Positions 18,492 through 31,563 of a DNA stretch of 39,052 bases are shown piece by piece (within the stretch, counting starts at the first letter, position 1; every line of letters starts with the position of its first letter). This DNA comes from Dehalococcoidia bacterium (GTDB lineage: Bacteria > Chloroflexota > Dehalococcoidia > Dehalococcoidales > Fen-1064), in contig DUFD01000034.1 in assembly GCA_011171075.1 (NCBI GenBank), positions 1 to 39,052 on the forward strand. The letters are read 5' to 3'. Both the position numbers and the translations under genes were made by a program. The notes under the pieces were generated by a model that did no database searches, had not been told where the DNA came from, and saw only the letters and a list, made by a program, of their open reading frames with translations.

Positions 18492-19505
18492 ATGTCTGAT
18501 TGGAAATCCGTACTGAATGCCGACCCGACCGACTGGCTCCTGGGGCGGGACAACCCCTCGGTACGCTACTTCACACTGGTTGACATTCTGGGAATGCCCG
18601 AAGGCAACCCCGACGTATGCCAGACAAAACGGGCCATCATGCAAGAAGGCGTGGTGCCCAGGATACTGGCGAAACAATGGGAAGAGGGTACCTGGGAAAA
18701 GCCAGAGCGTTTCTACACAGGTAAGTACCGCAGCACCGTCTGGCAGCTTATCATCCTGGCAGAGCTTGGCGCCGATGGACACGATGAGAGGATACAAAGG
18801 GCGTGCGGCTTTATGCTGGAGACCAGCCAGGACAGAAGCACAGGTGGCTTCTCCATGAGGGGGAGTCTCCGGAACGGTGGCGGGCCGGCCGCTGTTATAC
18901 CCTGCCTTACCGGGAACATGGTCTGGAGTCTGCTGAGATTTGGTTATCAGGACCCGCGTGTGGAACGCGCTATCGAATGGATTACCACCTACCAGAGGTT
19001 TGATGATGGTGAAAGCAAACCGCCGGCAGGCTGGATTTACGAGAAATGGGAGATGTGCTGGGGACGCCATGTTTGCTCCATGGGGGTAATTAAGGTACTT
19101 AAGGCCCTTGCCGAAATCCCACCGGACAAACGAAGCCCGGAGGTCACCGCCACCATTGAGAACGGCGCCGAGTATTTTCTGCGTCACCACGTGCACAAGC
19201 GAAGCCACGCATTGGACAAGGTCAGCAAGCCGGGCTGGCGCAGGTTCGGCTTTCCCCGTATGTACCAGACGGACGTCGTGGAGATTCTGCGGGTCCTTAC
19301 TCAGCTTGGCTATTACGACCCCCATATGCAGGAGGCCATCGACCTGGTTATCTCCAAGCAGGACGAGCAAGGGAGATGGATTATGAACGATACCTTCAAT
19401 GGTAGCTTCCAGGTGGACATTGAGGCGAAGGGGCAGCCGAGTAAATGGGTCACGCTCAATGCCCTGAGGGTGCTGAAGCGGGTAGATGAGCTGGGTGGGG
19501 GTTAA
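18492..19505 (+). CDS. Alpha/alpha-toroid (prenyltransferase/squalene-oxidase-repeat-like) protein
   Basis: A 337-residue protein of helical repeats resembling the terpene cyclase/prenyltransferase or six-hairpin glycosidase toroid. Repeat-like segments: QLIILAELGADGHDERIQRACGF, MVWSLLRFGYQDPRVERAIEWI, VIKVLKALAEIP...ATIENGAEYFL and EILRVLTQLGYYDPHMQEAIDLV, each followed by a Gly/Trp turn (TGGFSMRG, QDEQGRWIMN). The DxDD acid of squalene-hopene cyclases is not seen, so cyclase activity is unlikely. ATG at 18492 has GAGGAGG nine bases upstream; a GTG at 18483 overlapping the previous stop is the alternative. No signal peptide, so cytoplasmic. Final gene of the sugar operon; could act on the glycoside product. 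Function not assigned. Confidence 0.72.
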   Translation: MSDWKSVLNADPTDWLLGRDNPSVRYFTLVDILGMPEGNPDVCQTKRAIMQEGVVPRILAKQWEEGTWEKPERFYTGKYRSTVWQLIILAELGADGHDERIQRACGFMLETSQDRSTGGFSMRGSLRNGGGPAAVIPCLTGNMVWSLLRFGYQDPRVERAIEWITTYQRFDDGESKPPAGWIYEKWEMCWGRHVCSMGVIKVLKALAEIPPDKRSPEVTATIENGAEYFLRHHVHKRSHALDKVSKPGWRRFGFPRMYQTDVVEILRVLTQLGYYDPHMQEAIDLVISKQDEQGRWIMNDTFNGSFQVDIEAKGQPSKWVTLNALRVLKRVDELGGG

Positions 19506-19526
19506 GCAGATTAAAATAGTCGCTGG

Positions 19527-19883
19527 CTATTTCGCCACACTCCGCTTTAACCCTATAATAGAAATCAATTTATGCTCTATTTCATTCAAGTCATAATTAG
19601 ATAATGTGCCTAATTTCCGTATTATCATATCCCGTTTCACAGTTCTAATAATACCTGTGGCAACCGATGGACTTACAAGTTTTGCTTGCTTCCAATCACG
19701 TATTAAATAGTCACCAGTGAGTATTCTATCAGTCCTACTAGTCACAGCTTGAATTATTACTTCTTGACGTTGCCTATGATATGCGTCAGTACTGATAATA
19801 ACAGCAGGACGTTGCTTGACCCCCGATTCGTCAGAGAAAACGAAACTAACTATGACTATGTCACCTCGCTTATAGTTGGTCAT
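19527..19883 (-). CDS. MazF/PemK-family mRNA interferase toxin
   Basis: A 118-residue MazF-like protein. The family core is visible: YKRGDIVIVSFVFSDESGVKQRPAVIIS (conserved GDIV, KxRPAVII), then EVIIQAVTSR and a C-terminal helical part. These toxins cleave mRNA at short sequences; the RPAVIIS Arg and the VTSR Ser/Thr region match the catalytic positions. ATG at 19883 with an AGGAG site nine bases upstream; it begins inside the last codons of the upstream partner (14-bp overlap), the classic antitoxin-toxin coupling. Base composition is visibly more AT-rich than the flanking operons, consistent with horizontal gain. The target sequence is unknown. Confidence 0.85.
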   Translation of the reverse strand: MTNYKRGDIVIVSFVFSDESGVKQRPAVIISTDAYHRQRQEVIIQAVTSRTDRILTGDYLIRDWKQAKLVSPSVATGIIRTVKRDMIIRKLGTLSNYDLNEIEHKLISIIGLKRSVAK

Positions 19884-20433
19884 AAGCTTCGTCTCCTGCG
19901 TTGTCCCATAACTCAGCAAGGACAGGGTCACTGACACCGGATATAGCGAGTATAATATCAAGACTCTCTGTGAGTTCAGACTCGTCAGAAATCTTGTCAA
20001 ATTCTATGCGTGTAAGAATAGCCCACATTTGCCCTCTGAGATGTTCCATTATTTCCCTAGCTTCAGCGAGGGCGGTTTTCCATTTCCTATTCGCCTCTAT
20101 TACATCTAAGCTATAAGTCTCTTTTGCTGTTTCTAATTTTTTACTATATTCTTCCCTTAATTTTTCCTCGTCTATCTGCAAGGTCTTTATAGCATCGCGA
20201 ATTGCCTTCTGATAATCATCGTTTACTTTTTTTTCGGCCTCTTTGTAGGCTCTTATTATTTGCTGTTCCTGCCTCTTGTATCCCTTTATTACTTCCTTCT
20301 GAGCCTGCCGGTACATCATAAAGGCGTTTTCCGCTTGGCTCAGAAGTTCTGCTAAGTAATCTCGGGTTTCTTTTGCATTCTCAGATAAATACTTGTCTTG
20401 GTTTTCTGTTTGTCTTTTTATACTTTCAGGCAT
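19870..20433 (-). CDS. Coiled-coil putative antitoxin with MazE-type tail
   Basis: A 187-residue protein, the first gene of the toxin-antitoxin pair. Residues ~1-140 are almost entirely charged amphipathic helix (for example KEVIKGYKRQEQQIIRAYKEA), predicted as a long coiled coil with several YxxA/YxxE-type heptads. The C-terminus VLAELWDNAGDEAYDQL is the acidic/aromatic tail typical of antitoxins that cap the MazF active site (LAE.WDN...D..YD.L). No AbrB, ribbon-helix-helix or HTH domain that could bind DNA is recognised, so autoregulation must work differently or be absent. Much longer than usual MazE antitoxins (about 80). Assignment as antitoxin is inference from tail and coupling. Confidence 0.65.
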   Translation of the reverse strand: MPESIKRQTENQDKYLSENAKETRDYLAELLSQAENAFMMYRQAQKEVIKGYKRQEQQIIRAYKEAEKKVNDDYQKAIRDAIKTLQIDEEKLREEYSKKLETAKETYSLDVIEANRKWKTALAEAREIMEHLRGQMWAILTRIEFDKISDESELTESLDIILAISGVSDPVLAELWDNAGDEAYDQL

Positions 20434-20486
20434 CTTTGTTCAATCCGTATTTTAATTATCTAGGAGATATAATACACCCGTATCCT

Positions 20487-20897
20487 CTAATCACTAGTCC
20501 CATCTCCCACAATCTTAATCAGTAACGAGCGGTTACGCGGGCCGTCAAACTCGCAGAAGAAGACTCCCTGCCATGTCCCCAGTACCGGCCTGCCGTCCTC
20601 TATGAAGATTGTCTGGGAGCTGCCCATCAGGCTGGCCTTGATGTGCGCCGGTGAGTTCCCCTCCAGGTGGCGGTAGTGGTTATGCTGCGGGACCATCTTG
20701 TCCAGCTGGGCAGCAATATCCTGGACAACCGAGGGATCGGCATGCTCGTTGATGGTGATTCCAGCAGTGGTGTGCGGCACAAAAACGTGGCAGACACCGC
20801 TCTTGACACCGCTGGACGAAATCGTATCACGGACCGTCCCGGTGATGTCCTGGAACTCCACCTTGCCGCCGGTACGGACGCTTAACCGGTATAACAC
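20487..20897 (-). CDS. YjbQ/UPF0047 family protein
   Basis: A 136-residue protein of the UPF0047 (YjbQ) family. The signature VFVPHTTAGITINEHADPSV, then HNHYRHLEGNSPAHIKASLMG and GTWQGVFFCEFDGPRNR are nearly consensus; conserved His and Glu residues probably bind metal. Family members have weak thiamine-phosphate synthase activity in E. coli (a secondary activity), and their main role is unsettled. Normal length. ATG at 20897, with a GGAGTGC site before it; the gene follows the META lipoprotein by 12 bp, so they are probably cotranscribed although functionally unrelated as far as can be seen. Confidence 0.93.
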   Translation of the reverse strand: MLYRLSVRTGGKVEFQDITGTVRDTISSSGVKSGVCHVFVPHTTAGITINEHADPSVVQDIAAQLDKMVPQHNHYRHLEGNSPAHIKASLMGSSQTIFIEDGRPVLGTWQGVFFCEFDGPRNRSLLIKIVGDGTSD

Positions 20898-20909
20898 GAT
20901 GCACTCCTT

Positions 20910-21338
20910 CTAATCACCTGTAAAGACCATCACGGTACCATCGGAACAGGTAATCCGCAGTTTGCCGTCCTTAACTTCATAGCTCTCGGCCAATCTGAGC
21001 GACTGCAAATATTGTTCTTCCTGGTCCATGACGCCCTCCGGCTCCATGCAGTACATCTCCGTGTTGCCAATGAGAGGAATCGAAAGACTGCTACCATCGA
21101 CTTCGTAATCGCCGAAATAGCTGTTACAGCCGGCAGAGCCACTGACTTCGTGCTCCGCACTATCGAAAGTGGCGGTGATTTCGGTATCATCTATCACGGA
21201 CTGCGCGTTCCCCGGTTCACCGTAGGACTCAAGCACCCACTCCATGTCCTCGAAGGCAACCGTCTCGCCCTCACAAGCCACCAACCCGATGGCCAGTAGC
21301 ACCAGAAACACGACTGATAGCTTCACCCAATAATTCAT
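20910..21338 (-). CDS. META/HslJ-like domain lipoprotein
   Basis: A 142-residue exported lipoprotein. A signal peptide (NYWVKLSVVFLVLLAIGLVAC) ends in the lipobox LVAC, with the lipidated Cys near residue 22. The mature part is a META/DUF306 domain: MEWVLESYG, a beta-rich middle, ATFDSAEHEVSGSAGCNSYFGDYEVDG (given as its start ATFDSAEHEV and end GCNSYFGDYEVDG) and LRLAESYEVKDGKLRIT. The GCNSYFGDY motif is the hallmark of the domain. ATG at 21338 with AGGAGATT is chosen over an upstream ATG at 21377 because it gives a proper signal peptide. Found in stress-related outer-layer proteins such as HslJ; role here unknown. Confidence 0.88.
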   Translation of the reverse strand: MNYWVKLSVVFLVLLAIGLVACEGETVAFEDMEWVLESYGEPGNAQSVIDDTEITATFDSAEHEVSGSAGCNSYFGDYEVDGSSLSIPLIGNTEMYCMEPEGVMDQEEQYLQSLRLAESYEVKDGKLRITCSDGTVMVFTGD

Positions 21339-21406
21339 GACAATCTCCTTGCAGGTAGCATTGACCGGTAGATTCACAGTCTAGTTGTTGGCCGTCCGGT
21401 TGTCAA

Positions 21407-21440
21407 CGTTAAAAGGCCTGGCAGATTGCTGCCAGGCCTT
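21407..21440 (-). terminator. Intrinsic terminator after the acidic coiled-coil gene
   Basis: Perfect 12-bp stem AAGGCCTGGCAG / CTGCCAGGCCTT with a 4-base loop; on the minus strand it is followed by TTTTAAC. It lies 28 bases after the stop at 21469 and separates that gene from the lipoprotein gene. Confidence 0.78.
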
Positions 21441-21468
21441 GACTATTTACCAGTTTGTACTACGGCAC

Positions 21469-22764
21469 TCAACTTGCCGCCATCGGGTCATCCTCTGCTT
21501 CCGTCAGGGCAGACTGGGTGCGTCCATTTGTGTGAAGCTCTACCGTAATGGTATTCTTTGCTGAGTTCTTGTGAGACTTCGGCCACAACCTTAATTTCCC
21601 ATCTTTACCGCCGTTTAACCGGCCCGGTACTACCCTGCTGACCTTGGGTAATGACAGCAATATCGGGAATAGCCTGACAGGTTCGCCCAGCGTAAGACTC
21701 ACCATAGTTGTCTTCTCATCCACACCCGACTCCGCCCGGATACGCGCACCGGGCAGGTTCAGCATTCGTTTCCTTAGTTCCTGCATCCATGATTCTTCGG
21801 CACCACCGACAATTTGTACGGTCACATTACCGCTATACTCACGAACAGTATCAGGCGAGCCCTCATCATGACTCTCCATAACAGCCGACTGTTCCTCTTC
21901 TTCTACTTCACCTTCTACTTCCTCTGCCTCGTCCTCTTCCTCTTCTTCCTCTACCTCCTCTGTTTCCTCTTCCTCTTCTCTCTCCAAGACGTTTACCTGT
22001 GTCTCAAGGGTTGGCTTAAGCACACTCTTACTCTCGTGCAGATTTGACAGGCTCATCTCAAGACTCATCAGGCTCTCCTGCAAATTTGCCAGGTCAAAGA
22101 CGGGCTCCTTGTCAGCTTCCTCTTCCTCCACATCGTCAAAAGTGATAACATCAGTAGATTCTACTGACAGTTCCGGCACATCCTCAATAACCTCAGTGAC
22201 CTCGGTAACCTCGGTCTCTGGTTCCATACGAGGGTATTGGCCATCCATAATGGTCTGTATATTCTGCTGGATTTCGGCCATACTGGTAGCCACCATTTCC
22301 CTGGTCTTCATGAAGGCCGTCTGCAGGGTTTTCTCGGTACTAGCAACAGCCTCCAAGATGACGGAGTGAACACCTTCGACAGAGGTAATACAACTTCTCA
22401 TCGTCTGGTCGAGAATTGCCGAGCTTTGCTGCTGCACCTCAGCGGTCGCCTCGGCCCTTACACGGTCGGCCTCAAGCTTGGCCTTCGCCTTGGCTTGCTC
22501 CGCCATCTGCTTTGCCTCTTCTATCGATTTCTCCATCGCTCTGGCAACAGACTGGAAGGCAGAGAATTGCTCCAGGTGCTTAAAAGCGGCCTCGCTGGAA
22601 CCGGTACTCGCCTCGAGAAACTCCACAACCTCCTTAGGGTCAAGACCATCCTTGACGATGCTGAATTCCCGGCCAAGCATCTCGATATGCTTACGCCGCA
22701 CCTCTTTTGACGACTCTTCAGGGGGGGATGAATTTGTTTTATCTTTTGAACCCAATATACCCAT
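21469..22764 (-). CDS. Acidic coiled-coil protein of unknown function
   Basis: A 431-residue cytoplasmic protein. Residues ~20-180 form a long coiled coil (AMEKSIEEAKQMAEQAKAKAK and similar heptads), residues ~195-330 an extremely acidic linker with Glu runs (EEEEETEEVEEEEEEDEAEE), and residues ~335-410 a compact C-terminal domain beginning NVTVQIVGGAEESWMQELRKRM and ending VVPGRLNGG, with strand-helix-strand pattern. The whole resembles DivIVA-like or scaffold proteins but I cannot assign a family. A start at ATG 22764 with no strong ribosome site. It is divergent from hpf (195-bp gap) and ends at a clear terminator. Its own regulation cannot be read. Confidence 0.75.
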   Translation of the reverse strand: MGILGSKDKTNSSPPEESSKEVRRKHIEMLGREFSIVKDGLDPKEVVEFLEASTGSSEAAFKHLEQFSAFQSVARAMEKSIEEAKQMAEQAKAKAKLEADRVRAEATAEVQQQSSAILDQTMRSCITSVEGVHSVILEAVASTEKTLQTAFMKTREMVATSMAEIQQNIQTIMDGQYPRMEPETEVTEVTEVIEDVPELSVESTDVITFDDVEEEEADKEPVFDLANLQESLMSLEMSLSNLHESKSVLKPTLETQVNVLEREEEEETEEVEEEEEEDEAEEVEGEVEEEEQSAVMESHDEGSPDTVREYSGNVTVQIVGGAEESWMQELRKRMLNLPGARIRAESGVDEKTTMVSLTLGEPVRLFPILLSLPKVSRVVPGRLNGGKDGKLRLWPKSHKNSAKNTITVELHTNGRTQSALTEAEDDPMAAS

Positions 22765-22898
22765 ACTTGTATTCTAGGACTGAGCATGTCGAATTTGAAT
22801 AGTACTTTCGACCAGACACATGCATTCAAAGGTACCACTCACTACCCAAAACAGGCCGAAAATCACCCGTGACAAACCAATACGTGGTCAGTCCTCCA

Positions 22899-22922
22899 TG
22901 GTATAATGGTCGTTATAACGAC
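22899..22922 (+). promoter_or_regulatory. Extended -10 promoter and palindrome before hpf
   Basis: TGGTATAAT (22899-22907) is a textbook extended -10; transcription should begin near 22914. There lies the perfect palindrome GTCGTTATAACGAC (22909-22922), well placed for a repressor over the start site. The -35 region is poor. Confidence 0.45.
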
Positions 22923-22964
22923 TCAAAGTACAAGTATTCCACCAACTACAAGGAGGTAATGGTC

Positions 22965-23501
22965 GTGGAGGTGCTCGTAGAAGGCAGGAACTGTGAGATA
23001 TCAGATACGGATTCAGATTATATCCAGAAGAAGGTCGGGAAACTGTCCCGACGCCTACGGAACATTGACAAAGTGAAAGTTGAAATAACCTCCGAGCCGA
23101 CAAAAGAGGCCAATAATCGGTTCGTTGCTCAGGTGACGGCCAGTGTGCGTGACACCCTTCTCAGGGCTGAGCAACGAGCGGCCGACCTGTATACGGCCAT
23201 TAATTCCACCGTGGACGCGATGGAGGGCCAGGTCGAAAGATACAAAGGCAGGCGATACGAGACAAAGAGGCGGGGGAATCGTTCCAAGAAGGAATCTCTA
23301 GTCTCCGACGTTACTCAAACCAGACTGGTCAGGACAAAACGCTTTACGGTGCAGTCCATGTCCCCGAACGAAGCAGCTCACCAGATGGAACTGCTTGGAC
23401 ACCAGTTTTTCCTGTTCACCAATGCGGACAGTGGTGAGCTCAATGTTGTTTACCTTCGTAAAGACAACAACTACGGTCTAATACAGCCCGTACTGGAATG
23501 A
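22965..23501 (+). CDS. hpf: Long-form ribosome hibernation promoting factor
   Basis: A 178-residue long HPF, which binds the 30S decoding region and pairs ribosomes into inactive 100S dimers. The N-terminal S30AE domain (~1-100) begins EVLVEGRNCEISDTDSDYI and contains KVKVEITSEP; the C-terminal dimerisation domain shows RTKRFTVQSMSPNEAAHQMELLGHQFFLF (start and end only: RTKRFTVQSMSPNEAA, GHQFFLF) and the end VVYLRKDNNYGLIQPVLE. GTG at 22965 is chosen, eight bases after AGGAGG; an ATG at 22959 is only two bases after that site. The promoter and palindrome just upstream suggest stationary-phase or stress control. A decayed copy of this C-terminus lies at 25807-25854. Confidence 0.93.
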   Translation: MEVLVEGRNCEISDTDSDYIQKKVGKLSRRLRNIDKVKVEITSEPTKEANNRFVAQVTASVRDTLLRAEQRAADLYTAINSTVDAMEGQVERYKGRRYETKRRGNRSKKESLVSDVTQTRLVRTKRFTVQSMSPNEAAHQMELLGHQFFLFTNADSGELNVVYLRKDNNYGLIQPVLE

Positions 23502-23617
23502 TGCAGGCAGAATTGTTAACCGGATTAAAGCCAGTCTAAGATAAGCGCTACTGATAACCTGAAACGTCAGAGTGCTTCCCCAAGACTCAAATGCGGAGGT
23601 AAGTCCAGAAGCAAGCC

Positions 23618-25795
23618 ATGGAGCGTTGGGAATTTAAAAACAGGCTCATTGGTTACGTGGCCATGGGGCTTCTGGTTCTGGCAACCAGCTTGTGGATGTT
23701 CTGGGGGGTAGAGGGAGTATACGGCGAAGGTTGGTGGGATGACTGGTATTTCCGGGCCCTCTATCTGCTACCGGGAATTATATGTCTGGTATTGACCCTG
23801 CTGGCATTATTGTGGTCGCGGATAGGAGGCTGGCTGCTAATCGCTATCGGTGGCGGTTTTGCCGGCTGGTGGTGGTGGCAAATCTCGACCACTGTCGGCC
23901 TGACTCTAGAGCGACTACTAATCACGCTGCCTGTCAGCGGCATGCTGGTCATTACTGGGATGCTTTTTCTTATTGAACACTACCGCCTAAAATCGCACTC
24001 CGAGACACCCTCAACACCCAAGAAGTGGCTGTATCGCCATACACGCTACGTGATTGGTATCGGCCTCCCGGTGCTGGTGGCCGCCGTTTCTGCCATCGTA
24101 ATTCCTCTCACCGAACCCCAACAGGCCGATGTCACGACGGCAGAGCCTGAGGTCTACAGTGAAAACGACCAGTTCAGGAACCTGACCGTTCAGTTCGTGA
24201 GAACGGTAGCCGAAGACTATTTCGCCCAGCGTCAGACGCAGCACCCGGAAGAACTGAGCACCAGAGGTAACTGGGACCTTGAGATAGTAATATATCATGG
24301 TGGCGAAAGAAAGGGGAGCGGTGAGTATCAGGCGAGGCACGAAACATTGTCCCTGGCACTGGAGACAGCAACCCGAAGTGCGCTTGACGCAAGACGTCAA
24401 GCCCTGGATGAGGAAGACCTCGAAGACGTGAGGTTTCTGGTCAATTTCTCACACAGCGGTTCCTTCTACAGTCAGCTCGACACGTTACTATCACTGTTAC
24501 CTTTCTATAATTACGACCGCAACCAATCACTCTCCGAATATGGCCAATTGTTCTCCTTCATCGAGTATAACAGCGAGGGCAAAGAGCTAATCGAGGACCT
24601 GGTGATAGTCCGCAGTCTGGACAAGGAACTGATTCTCGAGAGGATTGATGAGGGAAAGGAGTTTCTTTTCGGCTCTGAACACCCGGAAGAACATGGGTTC
24701 TATAAGAAGTATGACACCCTGGCTGATGACTTCGGGAACAGCCTGCATACCGTGTATTCCGCCTCGATAATATACACGTTTCTAAGGCTCTACGATTATG
24801 ACCAGGACGAAAGAATCATGGAACGCGTGCCGGACTGGGCCGATTTTCTCCTTTCCATGCAGAGTAAAGACGAAAATACATACGGTGCGTTCCACTATTC
24901 GTACTATTATGAAAACGACGAAAAAGAACAGAGGTTTGTGGTCGGAACGGCTGCCCTGAGTATTTTTACCCTGCTGGACTTATACGAGAGGACCGGCGAC
25001 TCCCGATATCTGGAATCGGCCAAGCTGGGTGGTGACTGGCTCACCACGATGCAAAAACCGGACGGAATTATGAAACCCTATAAGAGATACGAATCCGGTA
25101 GATGGCTTTACGGCACACAGGAATCGCTTCTCTATAACGGTCAGGTGCTGGCCTCTCTTTCCCGACTCTACATAGCTACCGGAGAGCAGAGATACTATGA
25201 TACCGCCAGGGCAATCGCCGACCATTTTTGTGAGAGGGTGGAAAATGAGGGTTGCTATCTGGGGGACGACTACCGCACTCCCAATCCTATCTCAAGTGCT
25301 TGGGTAATTATGTCCCTCCTCGATTTCTACAAGATAAACCAGGAGGACGTCTATAAAGACATTATCCTTAAATGCGGCGGCGACCTCGTAGAAAGACAGG
25401 AAACGGATGTAAGCAGCCCCCTGTACTACGGGAGCTGGCACCAGGCGTATTCGACAAGCGGGAACGGCTGGTTGGCTGAAGTGATGATGGAGATGTACTA
25501 TTTTTGCCGTGAGCACGGTGCGGAGGGATGTGAGAAGTATAAAGAAGCCTTGACCAGAGTGATATTATGGATAATCCAGAATACTTACTCGGCAGAAAAC
25601 ACATTCTTCCTTGAAGAACCCGAGAACGCAATAGGCGGTATCTTCTGGAACTACAAAAATAGATACGTCAGGACCGATTCGCTATGCCACGGCCTCAATG
25701 CCTACATTGGCATTCTAGATGATTTAGATGACGGCGTATTGCTCACGCTGCCGGAGGAACCCTTTGAGGTAATACTGAAAAGGCTACGAAATTGA
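23618..25795 (+). CDS. Membrane-anchored alpha/alpha-toroid protein, unknown function
   Basis: A 725-residue protein. Five hydrophobic segments occupy residues ~8-30, 48-68, 70-90, 100-122 and 140-165. A central mixed domain (~185-285, WDLEIVIYHGGERKGSG) is followed by a large helical toroid (~330-690) with repeats such as YTFLRLYDYDQDERIMERVPDWADFLL, SIFTLLDLYERTGDSRYLESAKLGGDWL and ASLSRLYIATGEQRYYDTARAIADHF (each quoted by core only). This resembles six-hairpin glycosidases or glucuronyl C5-epimerases, so it may act on an extracellular glycan, but no catalytic pair can be named. ATG with GGAGGTAAG further upstream, a weak site. Its stop overlaps the decayed hpf-like tail, so the gene sits between a real hpf and a fragment of one. 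Confidence 0.8.
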   Translation: MERWEFKNRLIGYVAMGLLVLATSLWMFWGVEGVYGEGWWDDWYFRALYLLPGIICLVLTLLALLWSRIGGWLLIAIGGGFAGWWWWQISTTVGLTLERLLITLPVSGMLVITGMLFLIEHYRLKSHSETPSTPKKWLYRHTRYVIGIGLPVLVAAVSAIVIPLTEPQQADVTTAEPEVYSENDQFRNLTVQFVRTVAEDYFAQRQTQHPEELSTRGNWDLEIVIYHGGERKGSGEYQARHETLSLALETATRSALDARRQALDEEDLEDVRFLVNFSHSGSFYSQLDTLLSLLPFYNYDRNQSLSEYGQLFSFIEYNSEGKELIEDLVIVRSLDKELILERIDEGKEFLFGSEHPEEHGFYKKYDTLADDFGNSLHTVYSASIIYTFLRLYDYDQDERIMERVPDWADFLLSMQSKDENTYGAFHYSYYYENDEKEQRFVVGTAALSIFTLLDLYERTGDSRYLESAKLGGDWLTTMQKPDGIMKPYKRYESGRWLYGTQESLLYNGQVLASLSRLYIATGEQRYYDTARAIADHFCERVENEGCYLGDDYRTPNPISSAWVIMSLLDFYKINQEDVYKDIILKCGGDLVERQETDVSSPLYYGSWHQAYSTSGNGWLAEVMMEMYYFCREHGAEGCEKYKEALTRVILWIIQNTYSAENTFFLEEPENAIGGIFWNYKNRYVRTDSLCHGLNAYIGILDDLDDGVLLTLPEEPFEVILKRLRN

Positions 25796-25806
25796 ACCCC
25801 GCCGAC

Positions 25807-25854
25807 TTGCGAAATGACGGTAACTGTGGTCTAATTCAGCCTGTACCGGACTGA
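25807..25854 (+). pseudogene. Decayed C-terminal fragment of an hpf gene
   Basis: Read in frame this stretch gives [15 protein letters not shown] and a stop, matching LRKDNNYGLIQPVLE and a stop at the end of the intact hpf (23457-23501 region). About 35 of 48 bases agree. The homology may start slightly earlier (LN at 25792, as in ELNVVYLR). No upstream continuation of the frame exists, since the preceding gene's stop lies there. It is a vestige of a second hpf copy. Confidence 0.6.
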
Positions 25855-25873
25855 CAGTTGGGGAGGTGAGAAT

Positions 25874-26557
25874 ATGGACCTGAAAGCTCTGCACAAGATA
25901 GGCTACGGCCTCTACGTGGTTACCTCAGTAAAGGGCGATAAACTTAATGGGCAGATAGCCAATACCGTTTTCCAGATAACCTCCGAGCCACCGACGGTCG
26001 CCGTGAGCATCAACAAGAGCAACCTGACCTGGGAGTTTATCAAGGAAAGCCGGGTTTTTACCGCGTCCGTCCTCTGCCAGGACACGCCACTCGACTTCAT
26101 CGGGCGTTTCGGGTTCAAGTCGGGCAGGGATACCGACAAGCTCGAAGGGCTCAACTATAAAATAGGCCAGACAAAAGCACCTATCGTTATCGATAACGCG
26201 GTATCTTATCTTGAGGTCGAGGTAACCAACGAGATGGACATGGGCACCCACACCGTCTTTGCCGGTCGGGTTGTAGATGCCGAAGTCCTCACCGAAGAGC
26301 CCTGCATGACCTACGAGTATTACCATCAAATCAAGCGAGGGGTAACACCGAAGACAGCCCCCAGCTATATTGAGGAGAAAAAGGCAGAGGCACCGGGCTC
26401 GGGGAAATACCGCTGTACCGTTTGCGGGTGGATTTACGACCCCGAGATTGGCGACCCGGATGGCGGTATCGCCGCGGGCACCCCGTTTGAGCAGGTGCCG
26501 GACGACTGGGTATGTCCTGTCTGCGGGGCCGCCAAGAGCGCTTTCGAGAAGATTTAG
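25874..26557 (+). CDS. Flavin reductase-rubredoxin fusion (high-molecular-weight rubredoxin type)
   Basis: A 227-residue two-domain redox protein. Residues ~1-160 are a flavin reductase-like FMN domain ([42 protein letters not shown]); residues ~175-227 are a rubredoxin with two CxxC sites, [20 protein letters not shown] and [15 protein letters not shown], binding one Fe(Cys)4. The arrangement matches Hrb of Moorella and related anaerobes, in which electrons pass from NADH-linked partners through FMN and the rubredoxin to a flavodiiron oxidase that removes oxygen or NO. ATG start with a GGGGAGGTGAG site. Supports an anaerobic or oxygen-sensitive lifestyle. The partner reductase is not in the window. 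Confidence 0.92.
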
Positions 26558-26619
26558 GTTGTTCGAATTTCAGGCACAGAAGCCCGTAGTGAGATTAAAA
26601 TCCGGGAGGCAAATACAAA

Positions 26620-27738
26620 TTGTCACTTAGTTCAGACATAAAAGAATACGCCCTGAGCCTCGGGTACGACCGGGTAGGCTTTACCACCGCCGACAGCTTT
26701 CCCGTTCTACAAAAAGAATTAAACGACCGTTCCGATATGTATGACTGGGTAGGACCGTGGTTACTGCGGAACGCTGACCCAAGGAATGTACTACCTGAGG
26801 CCCGGTCGGTAATAGCACTGGTCTACGACTACTTCCGGCACTCATATCCCGAGGGGATGACAGGTAAGGTCGGGCGATATTACCTGTCCTTGGGCAGTGG
26901 TGAGCCACCTCATCCTATTTATCGGGCACGCAATGTCTTACTGATTGAGTTTCTAACGAATCAGGGTTGCCGTGTGGGGTGGGGACTACCAGCCCGATCC
27001 TCGGCTGCCCGTGCCGGGGCAACCAGCTACGGTACGAACTGCTTCGCCTTTGCCGAAGGCATTGGCTCTTTTATCAGCATCGTTCCACTTGTGATAGACA
27101 AGGAACTTGAGTACGATACACCGACATTCGACGTAAATTGTCCTGAAGAATGCACTCTCTGCATTGATTCTTGCCCAACAGGGGCTCTTTACGAGCCACT
27201 GAGGATGAATCCTCGCCTTTGTATAACGTACAATACCTATTCCACACCAGGGTCAATCATTGGCAAAGGACAGGAAGTATTGCCTCTCGAGCTACGGGAG
27301 GGCATGGGTACCTGGGTTTTCGGCTGTGATGTCTGCCAGCAGGTCTGCCCACGCAATCAGGCCAAGCTCAAAGCAAAGCTACCGCCGAATGCTTTTCTTG
27401 AATACATTGCCGATGATTTCCAGCTCGAAAAGATACTGAACATTACCGACGAGCACTATCGTAGAATGTATGACTTGCTAGCGATGAAATACATCGTTAA
27501 TAAACGCTACTTTCGTAGAAATGCGGCGGTGGCTCTCGGCAACCAGGGTAGCCAGGAAGCTGTACCAGCACTGACCCGGGCAATGCAGGACCCGGATGAG
27601 TTGATTCGTGGACATGCTGCCTGGGCGCTGGGCAGGATTGGTGGCAAGCAGGCCAAACAAGCTCTGGAATCGAGCCTGCTACACGAAACATCCGAATACG
27701 CTACCGGGGAGATTAAGGCTGCCCTGACGATGTTTTAA
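26620..27738 (+). CDS. QueG-like 4Fe-4S protein with HEAT repeats
   Basis: A 372-residue relative of epoxyqueuosine reductase (QueG) and of the corrinoid/iron-sulfur reductive dehalogenase fold. The ferredoxin part has two clusters: CPEECTLCIDSCPTG plus later Cys, and CDVCQQVCPRNQ, around residues 165-250. HEAT-like repeats RRNAAVALGNQGSQEAVPALTRAM and IRGHAAWALGRIGGKQAKQAL end the protein, as in QueG. The QueG cobalamin-site motif (RYxxGRDYH) is not seen; the equivalent region reads VGRYYLSLGSGE, and the usual AGLGWIGKN loop reads ARAGATSYGTN. So tRNA epoxyqueuosine reduction is doubtful. TTG start at 26620, ten bases after GGGAGG. Substrate unknown. Confidence 0.83.
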   Translation: MSLSSDIKEYALSLGYDRVGFTTADSFPVLQKELNDRSDMYDWVGPWLLRNADPRNVLPEARSVIALVYDYFRHSYPEGMTGKVGRYYLSLGSGEPPHPIYRARNVLLIEFLTNQGCRVGWGLPARSSAARAGATSYGTNCFAFAEGIGSFISIVPLVIDKELEYDTPTFDVNCPEECTLCIDSCPTGALYEPLRMNPRLCITYNTYSTPGSIIGKGQEVLPLELREGMGTWVFGCDVCQQVCPRNQAKLKAKLPPNAFLEYIADDFQLEKILNITDEHYRRMYDLLAMKYIVNKRYFRRNAAVALGNQGSQEAVPALTRAMQDPDELIRGHAAWALGRIGGKQAKQALESSLLHETSEYATGEIKAALTMF

Positions 27739-27763
27739 CAAGAACGGAGCGGCGGACACTGAG

Positions 27764-28762
27764 GTGGCAAAAGAATCACAAAATCTTCCCCTAATCGCTG
27801 AGATAATTAAGCGTTCGCGGCTGCCGTGGCGCTGGGCTACCGTAATCGTTGCCGCTGTCTTGCTCCTGTTTTTCGCCCTGGCGGCACTCCTAGACGGGTC
27901 TTTCTCCGACCTTTCCGACTGGAACCTCTGGCGAGCGTTTCTGGGGCCGCCGTGTATAATAGTCTACATCCTGTCGATTTATCCGTTCATGCAGCGAATG
28001 TGGGAGCGGGCCCTCCAGGCTTTCGAGCCACTATTACCCTCTGAAGAGAATGAGACGGTGGTGACAGCCCTCGTGCCGAACCGCCGCTGGGAATGGGTGG
28101 CCGTATTGCTGGGAGCAGCCCTCTGGTTCGGTATAGAACGTCCCTGGCTCTGGGTTGACCAGTGGCTGGACGTTTATGCATCGGTCACAATCCTGCTTAT
28201 GTTTGCCATCTTAAGCTGGCTAATCTACAACGGACTAATCTGTGCCAGACGTCTTAATATACTGAGTCGAAAGCCCCTGAACATCGATATTTTCAACACC
28301 GAACTGGTACCCGTCGCCCGCTACAGCATGGGCATGGCGCTTGCCTTCACTGGCGGCATCAGCCTGAGCCTTGTATTCCAGTCCATTGAGAGCCTGTTAG
28401 CCTGGCAGAGCATCACCATTTATTCGATACTGGTCTGCGCGACGATTCTGCTGTTTTTCCTCTCCATGTGGAGCACGCACAATGTCATGGCCAGAGCCAA
28501 GAGGCGCGAGCACGACCTGGCACGGAATAATCTGGAAAAGGTCACACGCGAACTGAGGGAGGCAGCAGTACAGGATAGCCCGGAGGAAATGGACAGGCTT
28601 TATACCGCCGTGGCTGCCTGGGGTATCTACGAGAGGCATGTCCGCGAAACCCCGGAGTGGCCTTACAACGCTACTATATTACGCAGGTTGTCTGTGTCAG
28701 TCCTCATACCGGCTGTTGTCTACCTGATAAAGGTAATGTTCAACCTGACGATTGGCCTGTAG
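27764..28762 (+). CDS. Polytopic membrane protein of unknown function
   Basis: A 332-residue integral membrane protein with about seven hydrophobic segments: residues ~23-46, 63-82, 109-133, 139-165, 190-212, 218-240 and 302-330. Between the sixth and seventh is a charged, probably cytoplasmic helical region (~243-295, with LEKVTRELREAAVQ). No catalytic motif or named family is recognised. A GTG at 27764 is the best start, though its ribosome site is weak. It follows the QueG-like gene by 25 bp and is likely the last gene of that transcript; it converges on the two-CW regulator, with only nine bases between stops. Confidence 0.75.
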   Translation: MAKESQNLPLIAEIIKRSRLPWRWATVIVAAVLLLFFALAALLDGSFSDLSDWNLWRAFLGPPCIIVYILSIYPFMQRMWERALQAFEPLLPSEENETVVTALVPNRRWEWVAVLLGAALWFGIERPWLWVDQWLDVYASVTILLMFAILSWLIYNGLICARRLNILSRKPLNIDIFNTELVPVARYSMGMALAFTGGISLSLVFQSIESLLAWQSITIYSILVCATILLFFLSMWSTHNVMARAKRREHDLARNNLEKVTRELREAAVQDSPEEMDRLYTAVAAWGIYERHVRETPEWPYNATILRRLSVSVLIPAVVYLIKVMFNLTIGL

Positions 28763-28771
28763 TTCATACTT

Positions 28772-29161
28772 TCAAACGACAATATTGTGGAAAATCGAGT
28801 GATATACCTCACACTGTCGGCATAGCTTTATCTTGCTATCCCAGCTTGCCTGCAGCTCTCCATGACACAGGGTCCCGTTGATAAACCAGCAAAAATGCCC
28901 TGCCTTGAACTCCCACGCCGGACAATTCTCCCTCCGTTCAACAGGACAGTTCTTTATCTCCCAGCACCGAGGTACATCCCCGTTTGCGGACATCTTCAAG
29001 GCCAGGAGAAAGAGCAGTTGTCGCTCGACACTCACCGGTACGTTCCGCCACCCCTGCTCAAAACTCTGTATCGCTTTGCCCGAGACACACAGGAGGCGCG
29101 CCAGTTCACTCTGAGTCTTGCCCAGAGCACGGCGGACCATAGAAAATTCACTACCATTCAT
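28772..29161 (-). CDS. XRE-type HTH regulator with C-terminal two-CW domain
   Basis: A 129-residue regulator. The N-terminal HTH (residues ~5-55) is an XRE/Cro-type fold: MVRRALGKTQSELARLLCVSGKAIQSFEQGWRNVPVSVER (start and end only: MVRRALGKTQSELARLL, SGKAIQSFEQGWRNVP). The C-terminus (~63-120) is a cysteine-rich two-CW domain with CWEIKNCPVERRENCPAWEF, HFCWFINGTLCHG and KLCRQCEVY, which probably binds a metal or cluster and could serve as a redox or metal sensor. ATG at 29161 chosen for the HTH start; an in-frame ATG at 29209 is upstream of the probable promoter. Divergent from the small membrane protein gene; the palindromic operator there and similar half-sites in its own promoter suggest that it controls both. 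Confidence 0.88.
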   Translation of the reverse strand: MNGSEFSMVRRALGKTQSELARLLCVSGKAIQSFEQGWRNVPVSVERQLLFLLALKMSANGDVPRCWEIKNCPVERRENCPAWEFKAGHFCWFINGTLCHGELQASWDSKIKLCRQCEVYHSIFHNIVV

Positions 29162-29185
29162 CAGAGACCTGCACTCTCCTCCACA

Positions 29186-29220
29186 ATAATACCACAACGT
29201 AGGATACATTAACAGACCAC
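29186..29220 (-). promoter_or_regulatory. Regulator promoter with ACCACA half-sites
   Basis: On the minus strand TGGTATTAT is an extended -10 for the two-CW regulator. Plus-strand ACCACA half-sites at 29192 and 29216 match the arm of the operator at 29290-29306, and one overlaps the -10. This fits autoregulation. Confidence 0.4.
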
Positions 29221-29280
29221 ATTACTGCACTGCCCCCATATAAATAATCATGGTAAATACACGATATAAAAGACTGGTTG

Positions 29281-29309
29281 TTGACAGAAGTACCACATTG
29301 TGGTACACT
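29281..29309 (+). promoter_or_regulatory. Strong promoter with a palindromic operator in its spacer
   Basis: TTGACA (29281-29286), exactly 17 bases, then TACACT (29304-29309). The spacer is occupied by the perfect 17-bp palindrome GTACCACATTGTGGTAC (29290-29306). A repressor bound here would block RNA polymerase. The transcript should begin near 29316, 45 bases before the membrane protein start. Confidence 0.65.
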
Positions 29310-29360
29310 ATTTTTGGACCTGAAAAGATAAGGACAGGTAAGGAGGCGAGAGGAACGACG

Positions 29361-29813
29361 ATGAGGCGATTTCTGGCAATCGGTGTAGTGATTGTGGGTG
29401 TGGTGAGCCTGGTTCTTGGCACAGTATTTATTGTGCAGGCCAACACCACAAGTACCGAAATTAGAGCAGGGTTACAAGATGAAAAGGTAACCCTAGGCCT
29501 GCCAGCTGAGGATGAGGACGGTTACACAAATGGGAACGTGGTAGACACAACCGCAGAACTACAGGCCGCGCAGGACATCCTTCTTGAGCACATGCGCGAC
29601 AGCTATGGAACATATGGAGACACGGGCAGGGGTTCGCCCGAACGGACCTCATACCTTGATGGTCTTACCCTGATGAACTCGATGTACATAGCAACTATGG
29701 GTTATGGTGTCACCACGGTTATCACCGGTATTGGCGCCTTCATGATTATCGTGGGGATTGCCCTGGGCGCTACTGGAGTCCTGCTACTGCGGGCACAAAC
29801 AAGAGTATCGTAA
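29361..29813 (+). CDS. Small membrane protein, unknown function
   Basis: A 150-residue protein with an N-terminal hydrophobic segment (~3-25, FLAIGVVIVGVVSLVLGTVFIV) and a C-terminal one (~112-140, VTTVITGIGAFMIIVGIALGATGVLLL). Between them is an extracytoplasmic loop of about 85 residues rich in Asp, Glu and Tyr (AEDEDGYTNGNVVDTTAELQAAQ). No family recognised. ATG at 29361, after AGAGGAAC; a longer frame from 29250 would begin before the promoter. Preceded by the palindrome-controlled promoter and so probably the regulated target of the divergent two-CW regulator. Its stop lies 39 bases before a convergent terminator hairpin. Confidence 0.72.
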   Translation: MRRFLAIGVVIVGVVSLVLGTVFIVQANTTSTEIRAGLQDEKVTLGLPAEDEDGYTNGNVVDTTAELQAAQDILLEHMRDSYGTYGDTGRGSPERTSYLDGLTLMNSMYIATMGYGVTTVITGIGAFMIIVGIALGATGVLLLRAQTRVS

Positions 29814-29851
29814 TAGCATAAGATTTAGAGAAAGCTAGCAGCGCTTCGAGA

Positions 29852-29887
29852 GTCATTTGAACCCTCCCTCGAGGGGGTTCAAATGAC
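29852..29887. terminator. Bidirectional terminator hairpin between convergent genes
   Basis: Perfect 13-bp stem GTCATTTGAACCC / GGGTTCAAATGAC, with a 10-base loop that itself contains CCTCGAGG. It abuts the stop of the flavodoxin gene (29888) and lies 38 bases after the membrane protein stop. T tracts are short, so efficiency is uncertain. Confidence 0.6.
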
Positions 29888-30310
29888 CTACTCGGAGATT
29901 TCCTTAATATAATCGAGAATAGGTTGCAGGTTCTCTTTCTTAACGGCATCCCGGTTCCTGGACCCCCACCTCCCCGGCACCTTGAAGTACCGGATTTCCT
30001 GCCTGATGTTCTCCGGGATTTTCTCATAGGCAGCCGTACTCTCGGCATCCTCCGGGGGCACCAGCCCCACCACGAGCAAGATGACCTTTTTCCCTTGCAA
30101 AACAGGCCACTTTTTCTTCAGGTAACCCCGAAGGCTTATCCATCCGGCATACGTACCTGCGCAAATTATCACCAGGTCGTATTCCGTCAGTTTCCTGTTT
30201 TTTGCCTGGCCTGGTTTATAAAGGTCTGAGGAATCAATAGATTCATGCAGCCACTCTGCGTATTTCCGTGTCGAGCCGAGAAATGACCGGTATATAATCG
30301 CCGTTTTCAT
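29888..30310 (-). CDS. Flavodoxin-domain protein
   Basis: A 140-residue flavodoxin-like protein related to the menaquinone-dependent protoporphyrinogen oxidase (HemG) subgroup. The FMN-phosphate loop is in IIYRSFLGSTRKYAEWL, strand two VIICAGTYAGWISLRGYL resembles the flavin-contact loop, and KKVILLVVGL is the third strand. It is short and ends after a KEISE helix. Members shuttle electrons or oxidise protoporphyrinogen IX in heme biosynthesis; no heme gene is near, so a specific role cannot be given. ATG at 30310 with GGGAGGCCAGC upstream. Single-gene unit convergent with the membrane protein gene. Confidence 0.85.
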   Translation of the reverse strand: MKTAIIYRSFLGSTRKYAEWLHESIDSSDLYKPGQAKNRKLTEYDLVIICAGTYAGWISLRGYLKKKWPVLQGKKVILLVVGLVPPEDAESTAAYEKIPENIRQEIRYFKVPGRWGSRNRDAVKKENLQPILDYIKEISE

Positions 30311-30639
30311 AAAGCTGGCCTCCCGTTATTAGAGCTTGCCCCAGTATAACCTCATGTTGCAGAGATAAACAACCGGTAAATAACCACCAGGTCTTATTAA
30401 AATAGCCCCCTGGGCCAGTAAATTGGCACCTCTGGTACTTTTTCGTTTCTTACATTCGCATCACAATTGGTCAGTACAAAAAGAATACAGGCGTGAGCAA
30501 AGGTGGTGGGCAACTGGCCACGGCGGACGGGTATTGCATTATTATGTTATAATAAGCCCACGTGCTGAAGAAAAGCACGATACAACGCCGGCAGGGGAGC
30601 AATCCCTGGCCAGTTAGGGGGGGCGTCAGGAGGTGTTTG
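30311..30639. other. Intergenic leader with an extended -10 promoter
   Basis: About 330 bases between divergent genes. A plus-strand extended -10 TGTTATAAT (30545-30553) should start a transcript near 30560, giving an 80-base leader for the zinc-ribbon gene; its -35 is weak. I see no coding frame with a ribosome site in the rest. Confidence 0.5.
30545..30553 (+). promoter_or_regulatory. Extended -10 promoter before the zinc-ribbon gene
   Basis: TGTTATAAT is a perfect extended -10 element. No convincing -35 sits 17 bases upstream (GGACGG), but extended -10 promoters do not need one. It is the only promoter-like site in this gap on the plus strand. Confidence 0.45.
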
Positions 30640-31563
30640 ATGGCAAACTGTCCAAACTGTGGTCTGTCTACGATGCGGACCAAGGACTGGGCTTGCCAGT
30701 GGTGCGGTTACCCGCTGGTCTCGGGGATTTACGGTAAAACATCCAAGACATTTGCGGAACTCAAGCAGGAGAGAGAAGGCAACGCGGTAAGCACAGCCCT
30801 GCTGGTTGAAACCGAACCAACTGTAGAGCCTGAGCCCGAGATAAACGAGGTAGTCGAGACCGAGGTAGAACCGGAGCCTGAACCCGAGACAAGCCAACTC
30901 GTCGAGGCCGAGGTAGAGCCAGAACTCGAACCCGAGGCAAGTCAGCTCGTCGAGGCCGAGGCTGAGCCGGAACCTGAACCCGAGACAAGCCAGCTCGTCG
31001 AAGCCGAGGCTGAACCAGAACCAGAACCCGAGACAGGCCAAATTGTCGAGGCCGAGGCTGAGCCAGAACCCGAACCCGAGACAAGCCAGGTAGTCGAAGC
31101 CGAGGCTGAACCAGAACCCGAGCCAGAGACAAGCCAGGTCGTCGAGGCTGAAGCAGAACCGGAACCCGAACCAGAAACAAGCCAAGTGGCTGAGGCTGAG
31201 GTAGAGCCAAAACCCGAAACAAGCCCGGAAAAAGTAGTACAGCAAATACAGGAAGTAACTGTGTCGGAGCTGTGCACCTCATATCAAGGCTACGGGATGG
31301 CAGGCCACGATGAATTCAAGAACAGCGTCTTCCGGGTGAGGGGTATTGTCGATAGCATCGTAACCAAGGAAGTCGTCGACCAGTACCGTATCGCTCTGAC
31401 GGATGAACAACCGCATCCACTGGGAGACATCTACTGCAAGTTTGAGAAAAAGGATGCTCCAGAGCTCCATAAACTCACGGTAGGCCAGGAGCTTACAGTC
31501 CAGGGCAGATATGACGGCTTCGTGACGAATATTGTGCTGGCGGACTGTGTCCTGATTAAATAG
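30640..31563 (+). CDS. Zinc-ribbon, EPEP-repeat and OB-fold protein
   Basis: A 307-residue protein of three parts. Residues 1-27 form a zinc ribbon (CPNCGLSTMRTKDWACQWCG). Residues ~62-195 are an acidic Pro/Glu repeat: about nine units of roughly 16 residues, EPEPEPETSQVVEAEA and variants, encoded by 48-bp tandem repeats. Residues ~208-307 match a tRNA_anti-like OB-fold (ELCTSYQGYGMAGHDEFKNSVFRVRG, start and end only: ELCTSYQGYGM, FRVRG), then LTVGQELTVQGRYDGF. The repeat is a stiff acidic spacer between the ends. ATG at 30640 with AGGAGGTG. The zinc ribbon and OB-fold suggest nucleic-acid or protein binding, but the function is unknown. Confidence 0.8.
   Translation: MANCPNCGLSTMRTKDWACQWCGYPLVSGIYGKTSKTFAELKQEREGNAVSTALLVETEPTVEPEPEINEVVETEVEPEPEPETSQLVEAEVEPELEPEASQLVEAEAEPEPEPETSQLVEAEAEPEPEPETGQIVEAEAEPEPEPETSQVVEAEAEPEPEPETSQVVEAEAEPEPEPETSQVAEAEVEPKPETSPEKVVQQIQEVTVSELCTSYQGYGMAGHDEFKNSVFRVRGIVDSIVTKEVVDQYRIALTDEQPHPLGDIYCKFEKKDAPELHKLTVGQELTVQGRYDGFVTNIVLADCVLIK
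30826..31224 (+). repeat. 48-bp coding tandem repeat (EPEPEPETSQVVEAEA)
   Basis: About eight to nine imperfect units encoding 16 residues each. Units keep EPEP and SQ[VL]VEAE[AV] with scattered substitutions (for example EPELEPEASQLVEAEA, EPEPEPETGQIVEAEA). Synonymous differences between units show they are not a recent amplification, though the copy number could vary between strains. Confidence 0.85.

What the first reader, a model, noticed from the sequence alone, without database searches (positions are those of the whole stretch)
19527..20433. MazF-type toxin paired with a long coiled-coil antitoxin lacking a visible DNA-binding domain
The upstream protein has about 140 residues of coiled coil and then the tail VLAELWDNAGDEAYDQL, which looks like the toxin-neutralising tail of MazE-type antitoxins. 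It overlaps the toxin by 14 bp. Known MazF antitoxins usually carry AbrB, RHH or HTH domains; none is seen. The coiled coil could anchor, sense or oligomerise, so this may be a distinct toxin-antitoxin subtype.
Basis: partly seen in the sequence, partly recalled or inferred. Interest (0 to 1): 0.62.

Follow-up and report, generated by a model that had tools for sequence, protein, structure and literature searches.

The report
MazF antitoxin built on cytoskeleton-linked helix
A bacterial toxin-antitoxin pair in which the antitoxin has lost the usual DNA-binding part and instead carries a long helix that elsewhere is encoded beside a tubulin-like (CetZ) gene, suggesting that this toxin may be wired to the cell's cytoskeleton rather than to its own promoter.

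Summary
On the minus strand, an active-looking MazF/PemK toxin (19527-19883) overlaps by 14 bp an antitoxin (19870-20433) made of a ~140-residue helix plus a 45-residue tail. The tail is the standard one of this toxin subfamily: in relatives it follows HTH_17, ribbon-helix-helix or SWIM-like N-termini with the same overlap. The new result is the helix's origin. It is homologous (98 bits; at most 11 in shuffles) to a small protein normally encoded beside a CetZ-type tubulin in Dehalococcoidales, and sits inside that clade (100/99). Residues 26-58 are 91% identical to the native copy in the same genome, although 16 of 30 identical residues use different codons; residues 59-141 are about 30% identical. 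The segment is therefore under protein-level selection, which suggests a retained docking motif. The helix has 11-residue, not 7-residue, periodicity. The pair lies on a low-GC insert at an inversion breakpoint, is absent from both congeners, and no second fusion was found in 156 order, 393 class or 400 phylum genomes. I read it as a single-lineage domain swap in a modular antitoxin family: a new variant of a known kind. The cytoskeletal link is inferred, not shown.

The parts
19527..19883 (-). MazF/PemK-type toxin, 118 aa (MTNYKRGDIVIVSF...)
   Evidence: Pfam PF02452 E 2.2e-14 over cut-off; profile matches solved MazF/EndoA/MazF6/MazF7; R25 and T48 invariant among close relatives; the only PemK/MazF in this genome
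19870..20433 (-). Antitoxin, 187 aa: hendecad helix plus MazF-neutralising tail
   Evidence: Translation; overlaps toxin start by 14 bp, as in most close relatives
20011..20427 (-). Long helix, residues 3-141, homologous to the small helical protein encoded beside CetZ genes
   Evidence: 46% id, E 2e-28 to G000:C36:41650-42024; shuffle control 98 vs at most 11 bits; clade support 100/99; AF2 helix 3-141; period 3.65-3.67
20260..20358 (-). Conserved segment, residues 26-58 (YLAELLSQAENAFMMYRQAQKEVIKGYKRQEQQ), proposed docking motif
   Evidence: 30/33 identical to native coil of same genome versus 25/83 in residues 59-141 (p 1e-9); 16 of 30 identical residues use a different codon
19873..20010 (-). 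Tail, residues 142-187 (...SDPVLAELWDNAGDEAYDQL), predicted toxin-neutralising segment
   Evidence: Shared with HTH_17-, SWIM-like-, RHH-type and other antitoxins of the same toxin subfamily
19506..20486 (.). Low-GC insert holding the pair, at the breakpoint of an inversion relative to congeners
   Evidence: GC 38-43% versus 55-60% in flanks; syntenic flanks at 19498 and 20508 in G013/G012 without the pair

Best explanation
This is a type II toxin-antitoxin pair. SHOWN BY SEQUENCE: the toxin is a MazF/PemK-family protein with the conserved R25/T48 positions. The antitoxin keeps the ~45-residue tail of this subfamily, but its N-terminal DNA-binding domain (HTH_17 in the nearest relatives) has been replaced by a copy of the small 11-residue-repeat helical protein that Dehalococcoidales encode beside a CetZ-type tubulin. 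A 33-residue segment of that helix has been kept by selection. INFERRED: (1) the tail wraps the MazF dimer and blocks its active site as in MazE; (2) the helix forms a parallel dimer that presents two tails, taking over the dimerising role of the lost domain; (3) the pair cannot repress its own promoter through this antitoxin; (4) the conserved segment docks the complex on the partner of the native helix protein (CetZ, the neighbouring Ala-rich coiled coil, or the native helix itself), so that location or stability of the antitoxin depends on that assembly.
For: Tail-toxin unit conserved with the same 14-bp overlap across varied N-termini. The window toxin sits among HTH_17-partnered toxins (98/80 and 95/81 with L051 and L055). 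Helix homology 98 bits versus at most 11 in heptad, full or reversed controls, and placed inside the family-f1 CetZ-linked clade (100/99). Segment 26-58 is 91% identical against 30% for residues 59-141, with synonymous divergence like that between native copies of different species. CetZ adjacency in 35 of 41 order loci. All 65 helix-bearing genomes carry CetZ versus 64 of 91 others (p 7e-8). The own genome holds the native helix beside CetZ.
Against: One MAG only; no second coil-tail fusion in 156 order, 393 class or 400 phylum genomes. No expression, toxicity or binding data. AlphaFold2 did not resolve the toxin (no usable toxin alignment could be supplied), so docking is untested. The native helix's partner is unknown; adjacency and co-occurrence are indirect, genomes are related so the p-value overstates independence, and in family f62 most copies lie beside a different gene.
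Confidence: 0.62

Rival explanations
1. The captured helix is only a dimeriser. It replaces the dimer interface lost with the HTH domain, and the pair works as a plain MazEF-like module without autoregulation; the CetZ link is historical.
For: Long 11-residue-repeat helix; the native homologue weakly resembles ATP synthase subunit b, a dimeric stalk (E 7e-4, below cut-off). Antitoxins of this toxin subfamily tolerate many N-termini.
Against: A pure dimeriser does not explain why residues 26-58 stay 91% identical while the rest of the same helix drops to about 30% despite synonymous divergence.
Confidence: 0.25
2. Gene conversion, not selection: the 33-residue segment was copied from the native gene by recombination, and the helix has no docking role.
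For: The orphan helix L004 in G013 has nearly the same DNA as the native copy L010 over this stretch (97 of 99 bases by eye from the sequences printed), so local duplication or exchange does occur.
Against: In the window 16 of 30 identical residues use a different codon from the own native gene, more than 12 of 31 between native genes of different species, so any conversion was old and the protein was preserved afterwards.
Confidence: 0.08
3. The pair is decayed or inactive: a relic in which a chance fusion destroyed regulation.
For: Single occurrence, long branch of the helix (1.6), low-GC insert at a rearrangement breakpoint.
Against: Both frames are intact, the toxin keeps all residues invariant in close relatives, the tail keeps its conserved positions, and segment 26-58 is under constraint.
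Confidence: 0.07
4. Assembly or binning chimera in the MAG joins unrelated pieces.
For: MAG; the insert differs in GC from its flanks and lies at an inversion breakpoint relative to congeners.
Against: GC is uniform across the coil-tail junction (39% and 40%), one open frame, and the usual 14-bp overlap; the helix groups with its own family's copies.
Confidence: 0.05

Closest known systems
HTH_17 (excisionase-type) antitoxin-PemK/MazF pairs of Dehalococcoidia (e.g. L043, L044, L051)
   Same: Toxin 52-65% identical, the same ~45-residue tail, the same 14-bp overlap
   Different: N-terminus is HTH_17 instead of the CetZ-linked helix
MazEF / PemIK (type II)
   Same: MazF-family toxin; antitoxin with N-terminal domain plus acidic C-terminal neutralising tail (architecture reviewed in PMC4803016)
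   Different: No AbrB, RHH or HTH domain; autoregulation by the antitoxin not expected
Small helical protein encoded beside CetZ-type tubulin in Dehalococcoidales
   Same: Homologous over residues ~20-141 with segment 26-58 91% identical. CetZ-like proteins in Chloroflexota-Dehalococcoidia are described in PMC9871819; I found no description of this partner
   Different: The native protein ends at about residue 141 with no tail and no toxin gene beside it
XF1863-type MazF partner (PMC2701414)
   Same: A MazF partner without a recognised DNA-binding family
   Different: Predicted strand-helix-helix there, not a long helix; not compared by sequence here
CbtA/CbeA (type IV)
   Same: A TA system linked to the bacterial cytoskeleton (PMC5624674)
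   Different: There the toxin acts on FtsZ and MreB; here the toxin is an RNase-family protein and the antitoxin carries the putative cytoskeletal link
PanAT (Panacea) systems (PMC8832971)
   Same: Modular antitoxin with variable N-termini, many of them HTH
   Different: A promiscuous neutralising domain with many toxins; here a fixed tail and toxin with exchanged N-termini

Membership tests
MazF/PemK toxin family (PF02452) | Profile match above the curated cut-off | tested here: met
   54 bits versus 23.1
MazF/PemK toxin family (PF02452) | Catalytic Arg and Thr positions kept | tested here: met
   R25 and T48 invariant in A3 and aligned within the rP and aaiT(s/g)r blocks of solved MazF; catalytic role from general knowledge
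MazF/PemK toxin family (PF02452) | Sequence-specific RNA cleavage, toxicity | not testable with these tools
   No wet-lab assay available
Type II TA pair | Antitoxin gene upstream of and overlapping or adjacent to the toxin gene | tested here: met
   14-bp overlap, same as relatives
Type II TA pair | Neutralising segment homologous to that of known or predicted cognate antitoxins | tested here: met
   Tail shared with many predicted antitoxins of the same toxin subfamily
Type II TA pair | Direct protein-protein neutralisation | not testable with these tools
   AlphaFold2 on the read-through chain did not fold the toxin; no multimer tool
MazE/PemI-type autoregulating antitoxin | Recognisable AbrB, RHH, HTH or Phd DNA-binding domain | tested here: not met
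   No Pfam or NCBIfam hit above cut-off
CetZ-linked small helical protein | Homology over the helix with conserved segment LLSQAENA..MYRQAQKEV..GYK | tested here: met
CetZ-linked small helical protein | Gene beside a CetZ-type tubulin | tested here: not met
   No tubulin match in the 3.6 kb locus around the antitoxin; the native copy on contig C36 is beside one
Canonical (heptad) coiled coil | Hydrophobic period of 3.5 | tested here: not met
   Power 1.8 at 3.5 versus 13.6 at 3.667; shuffle 95% 6.6

The most novel reading that the evidence does not exclude
A MazF system wired to a tubulin-like cytoskeleton. The antitoxin docks on the CetZ assembly through residues 26-58, and disturbance of that assembly (stress, phage, failed division) exposes or destabilises the antitoxin and frees the RNase, so the pair guards cytoskeletal integrity.
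Probability: 0.22. Interest if true: 0.85.

Novelty: new variant of a known kind. Interest (0 to 1): 0.62.

Why it matters
It shows that a MazF antitoxin can trade its DNA-binding domain for a helix drawn from a cytoskeleton-linked family while keeping its toxin-neutralising tail, and that a 33-residue piece of that helix is still under selection. That makes testable whether a toxin-antitoxin system can be controlled by cell architecture instead of its own promoter. The same segment is a lead to the unknown partner of bacterial CetZ in Dehalococcoidales.

Tried and rejected
(1) Weak Pfam/NCBIfam/PADLOC/PHROGs hits of the helix (PIN_8, DUF4168, ZorA, SsuA and others): all far below cut-offs, typical of helical composition. 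(2) The idea that the window ORF 21469-22764 is the same family as the gene beside the helix in f62 genomes: no similarity, dropped. (3) Relatives in viral contigs, phages and plasmids: none for the antitoxin or for the insert DNA; plasmid MazF hits at most 43% identical. (4) Docking by AlphaFold2 on the antitoxin-toxin read-through chain: helix resolved, toxin not, uninformative on docking. (5) Regulatory sites and RNAs: promoter and terminator matches at shuffle level, no inverted repeats, no Rfam hit. (6) The first genome-collection scan with P0001 alone found nothing; with close relatives it found only copies without the MazF tail. (7) Laying the whole genome in the Python box was not available.

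Full report
OBSERVATION. Both genes lie on the minus strand: a 187-aa ORF (19870-20433) and a 118-aa ORF (19527-19883), overlapping by 14 bp. The second passes Pfam's PemK_toxin cut-off, and a profile of its relatives matches solved MazF, EndoA, MazF6 and MazF7, with R25 and T48 invariant among close relatives. It is the only PemK/MazF in its genome. The first ORF has no hit above a curated cut-off in Pfam or NCBIfam, no convincing PADLOC hit and no PDB relative.

THE TAIL IS ORDINARY. The nearest toxins in the class (52-65% identical) are preceded by 93-131 aa ORFs that end in the same ~45 residues (...ADPVLAE[LI]WDNE.DAAYDRL), nearly all with the same 14-bp overlap. Their N-termini vary: HTH_17/excisionase type in most (Pfam E 2.8e-16; NCBIfam excise), a CxC...CxH SWIM-like motif in L049 and L052 (Pfam SWIM E 0.048, below cut-off), a ParD-like ribbon-helix-helix in L060 (E 4e-4, below cut-off), and a 207-aa unknown in L058. 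On the toxin tree the window toxin lies among HTH_17-partnered toxins (sister L051 98/80, then L055 95/81). The simplest history is that an HTH_17 domain was replaced here.

THE HELIX IS NOT ANONYMOUS. A search of the window's own family found a protein in the same genome (G000:C36, L009) 46% identical at E 2e-28, and others in sister genomes, matching residues ~20-141 only. These native proteins (mostly 140-190 aa) have no tail and no toxin gene; in this family they lie between a large Ala-rich coiled-coil gene and a tubulin-superfamily gene, which Pfam assigns to Tubulin (E 7e-30) and CetZ_C (E 3.5e-15). CetZ-like proteins in Chloroflexota-Dehalococcoidia are already reported (PMC9871819). 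Within the order the helix gene sits beside a tubulin-type gene in 35 of 41 loci, and all 65 helix-bearing genomes have a CetZ_C protein versus 64 of 91 others (genomes are related, so p = 7e-8 is only indicative). In family f62 most copies lie beside another gene.

HOMOLOGY, NOT COMPOSITION. The antitoxin helix scores 98.3 bits against native copies; 60 heptad-preserving shuffles reach 10.2, 60 full shuffles 11.1, the reversed sequence 8.4. On a tree of 53 helices it lies inside the f1 clade with 100/99 support, on a long branch. The periodicity is 3.65-3.67, i.e. 11-residue repeats, not 3.5, with aromatics at 41, 52, 63, 74, 96, 107 and 118. AlphaFold2 gives one helix, 3-141.

A SELECTED SEGMENT. 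Residues 26-58 are 30/33 identical to the own native copy, whereas 1-25 are 1/25, 59-99 14/41 and 100-141 11/42. Between native copies of different genera (L009, L006) residues 26-58, 59-99 and 100-141 give 91%, 59% and 33%. Of the 30 identical residues, 16 use a different codon; native pairs give 12/31 and 13/30; against L006 and L010 the window differs at 10 of 28. Hence the protein sequence, not the DNA, has been preserved, while the rest of the helix diverged. I read this as a retained binding site for whatever the native protein binds; which protein that is remains unknown.

SETTING. The pair lies on a 38-43% GC stretch between flanks of 55-60%. In congeners G013 and G012 the left flank is collinear up to 19498 and the region right of 20508 is inverted, with no TA at either joint; neither congener has any PemK/MazF. 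GC is uniform across the coil-tail junction (39% and 40%). The fusion was found nowhere else: order (156 genomes), class (393), phylum (400), viral contigs, phages.

MECHANISM. Shown by sequence: MazF family, shared tail, replaced N-terminus, conserved helix segment. Inferred: neutralisation by the tail as in MazE; dimerisation by the helix; no promoter binding by this antitoxin; docking on the CetZ-linked assembly. Docking could not be modelled because structure prediction accepts only window and certain collection-derived sequences, which left the toxin without an alignment.

VERDICT. A real, intact MazF pair whose antitoxin exchanged its DNA-binding domain for a CetZ-linked helix: a new variant of a known kind, so far in one MAG. 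The organism group (Dehalococcoidales) is inferred from record titles of close relatives. Literature searches of the held library turned up no MazF antitoxin with a cytoskeleton-linked domain; that library lacks most subscription papers.

Noticed in passing
L049:1143-1514 and L052:1173-1514: MazF antitoxins of the same subfamily whose N-terminus is a SWIM-like zinc motif (CxC...CxH) instead of HTH_17: a second, independent domain replacement (toxins form a 100/99 pair).
   Followed up: partly
L116:3998-4564 (same gene as L004:1432-1998, G013): An orphan copy of the CetZ-linked helix, not beside a tubulin gene, keeping the conserved segment but with a different C-terminal extension (...SLLTRLSWRIGKKFGERAVEAFRTTKVYW) and no toxin beside it; perhaps another captured use of the same segment.
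   Followed up: partly
L009:3-3108 and about 34 similar loci: A recurring neighbourhood in Dehalococcoidales: large Ala-rich coiled coil, small 11-residue-repeat helix, and CetZ-type tubulin (often convergent). CetZ_C proteins occur in 129 of 156 genomes of the order.
   Followed up: partly
L058:1829-2452: A 207-aa MazF partner with the same tail and an N-terminus of no known family.
   Followed up: no
L017:1429-3092 and similar f62 loci: In family f62 the helix gene is followed by a ~350-383 aa protein (GGREFKRVKNGLDEAQV...) and often preceded by a small ORF (MPVKINGRIYYRTAEVCQ...), without a tubulin gene in the locus; none of the functions is known.
   Followed up: no
window 19498-31553: About 11 kb (20508-31553) is inverted relative to both congeners, with the TA insert at one breakpoint.
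   Followed up: partly
window 30562-31563: ORF with a zinc-ribbon-like start and a run of EPEPEPETSQ(L/V)VEAEAE-type repeats.
   Followed up: no
L105, L108, L109, L113 (family f1): More distant MazF toxins of the same family are preceded by small, highly charged ORFs (e.g. ...QELANQRLQAELEEGYRAMA) that do not share the tail: another MazF partner type.
   Followed up: no
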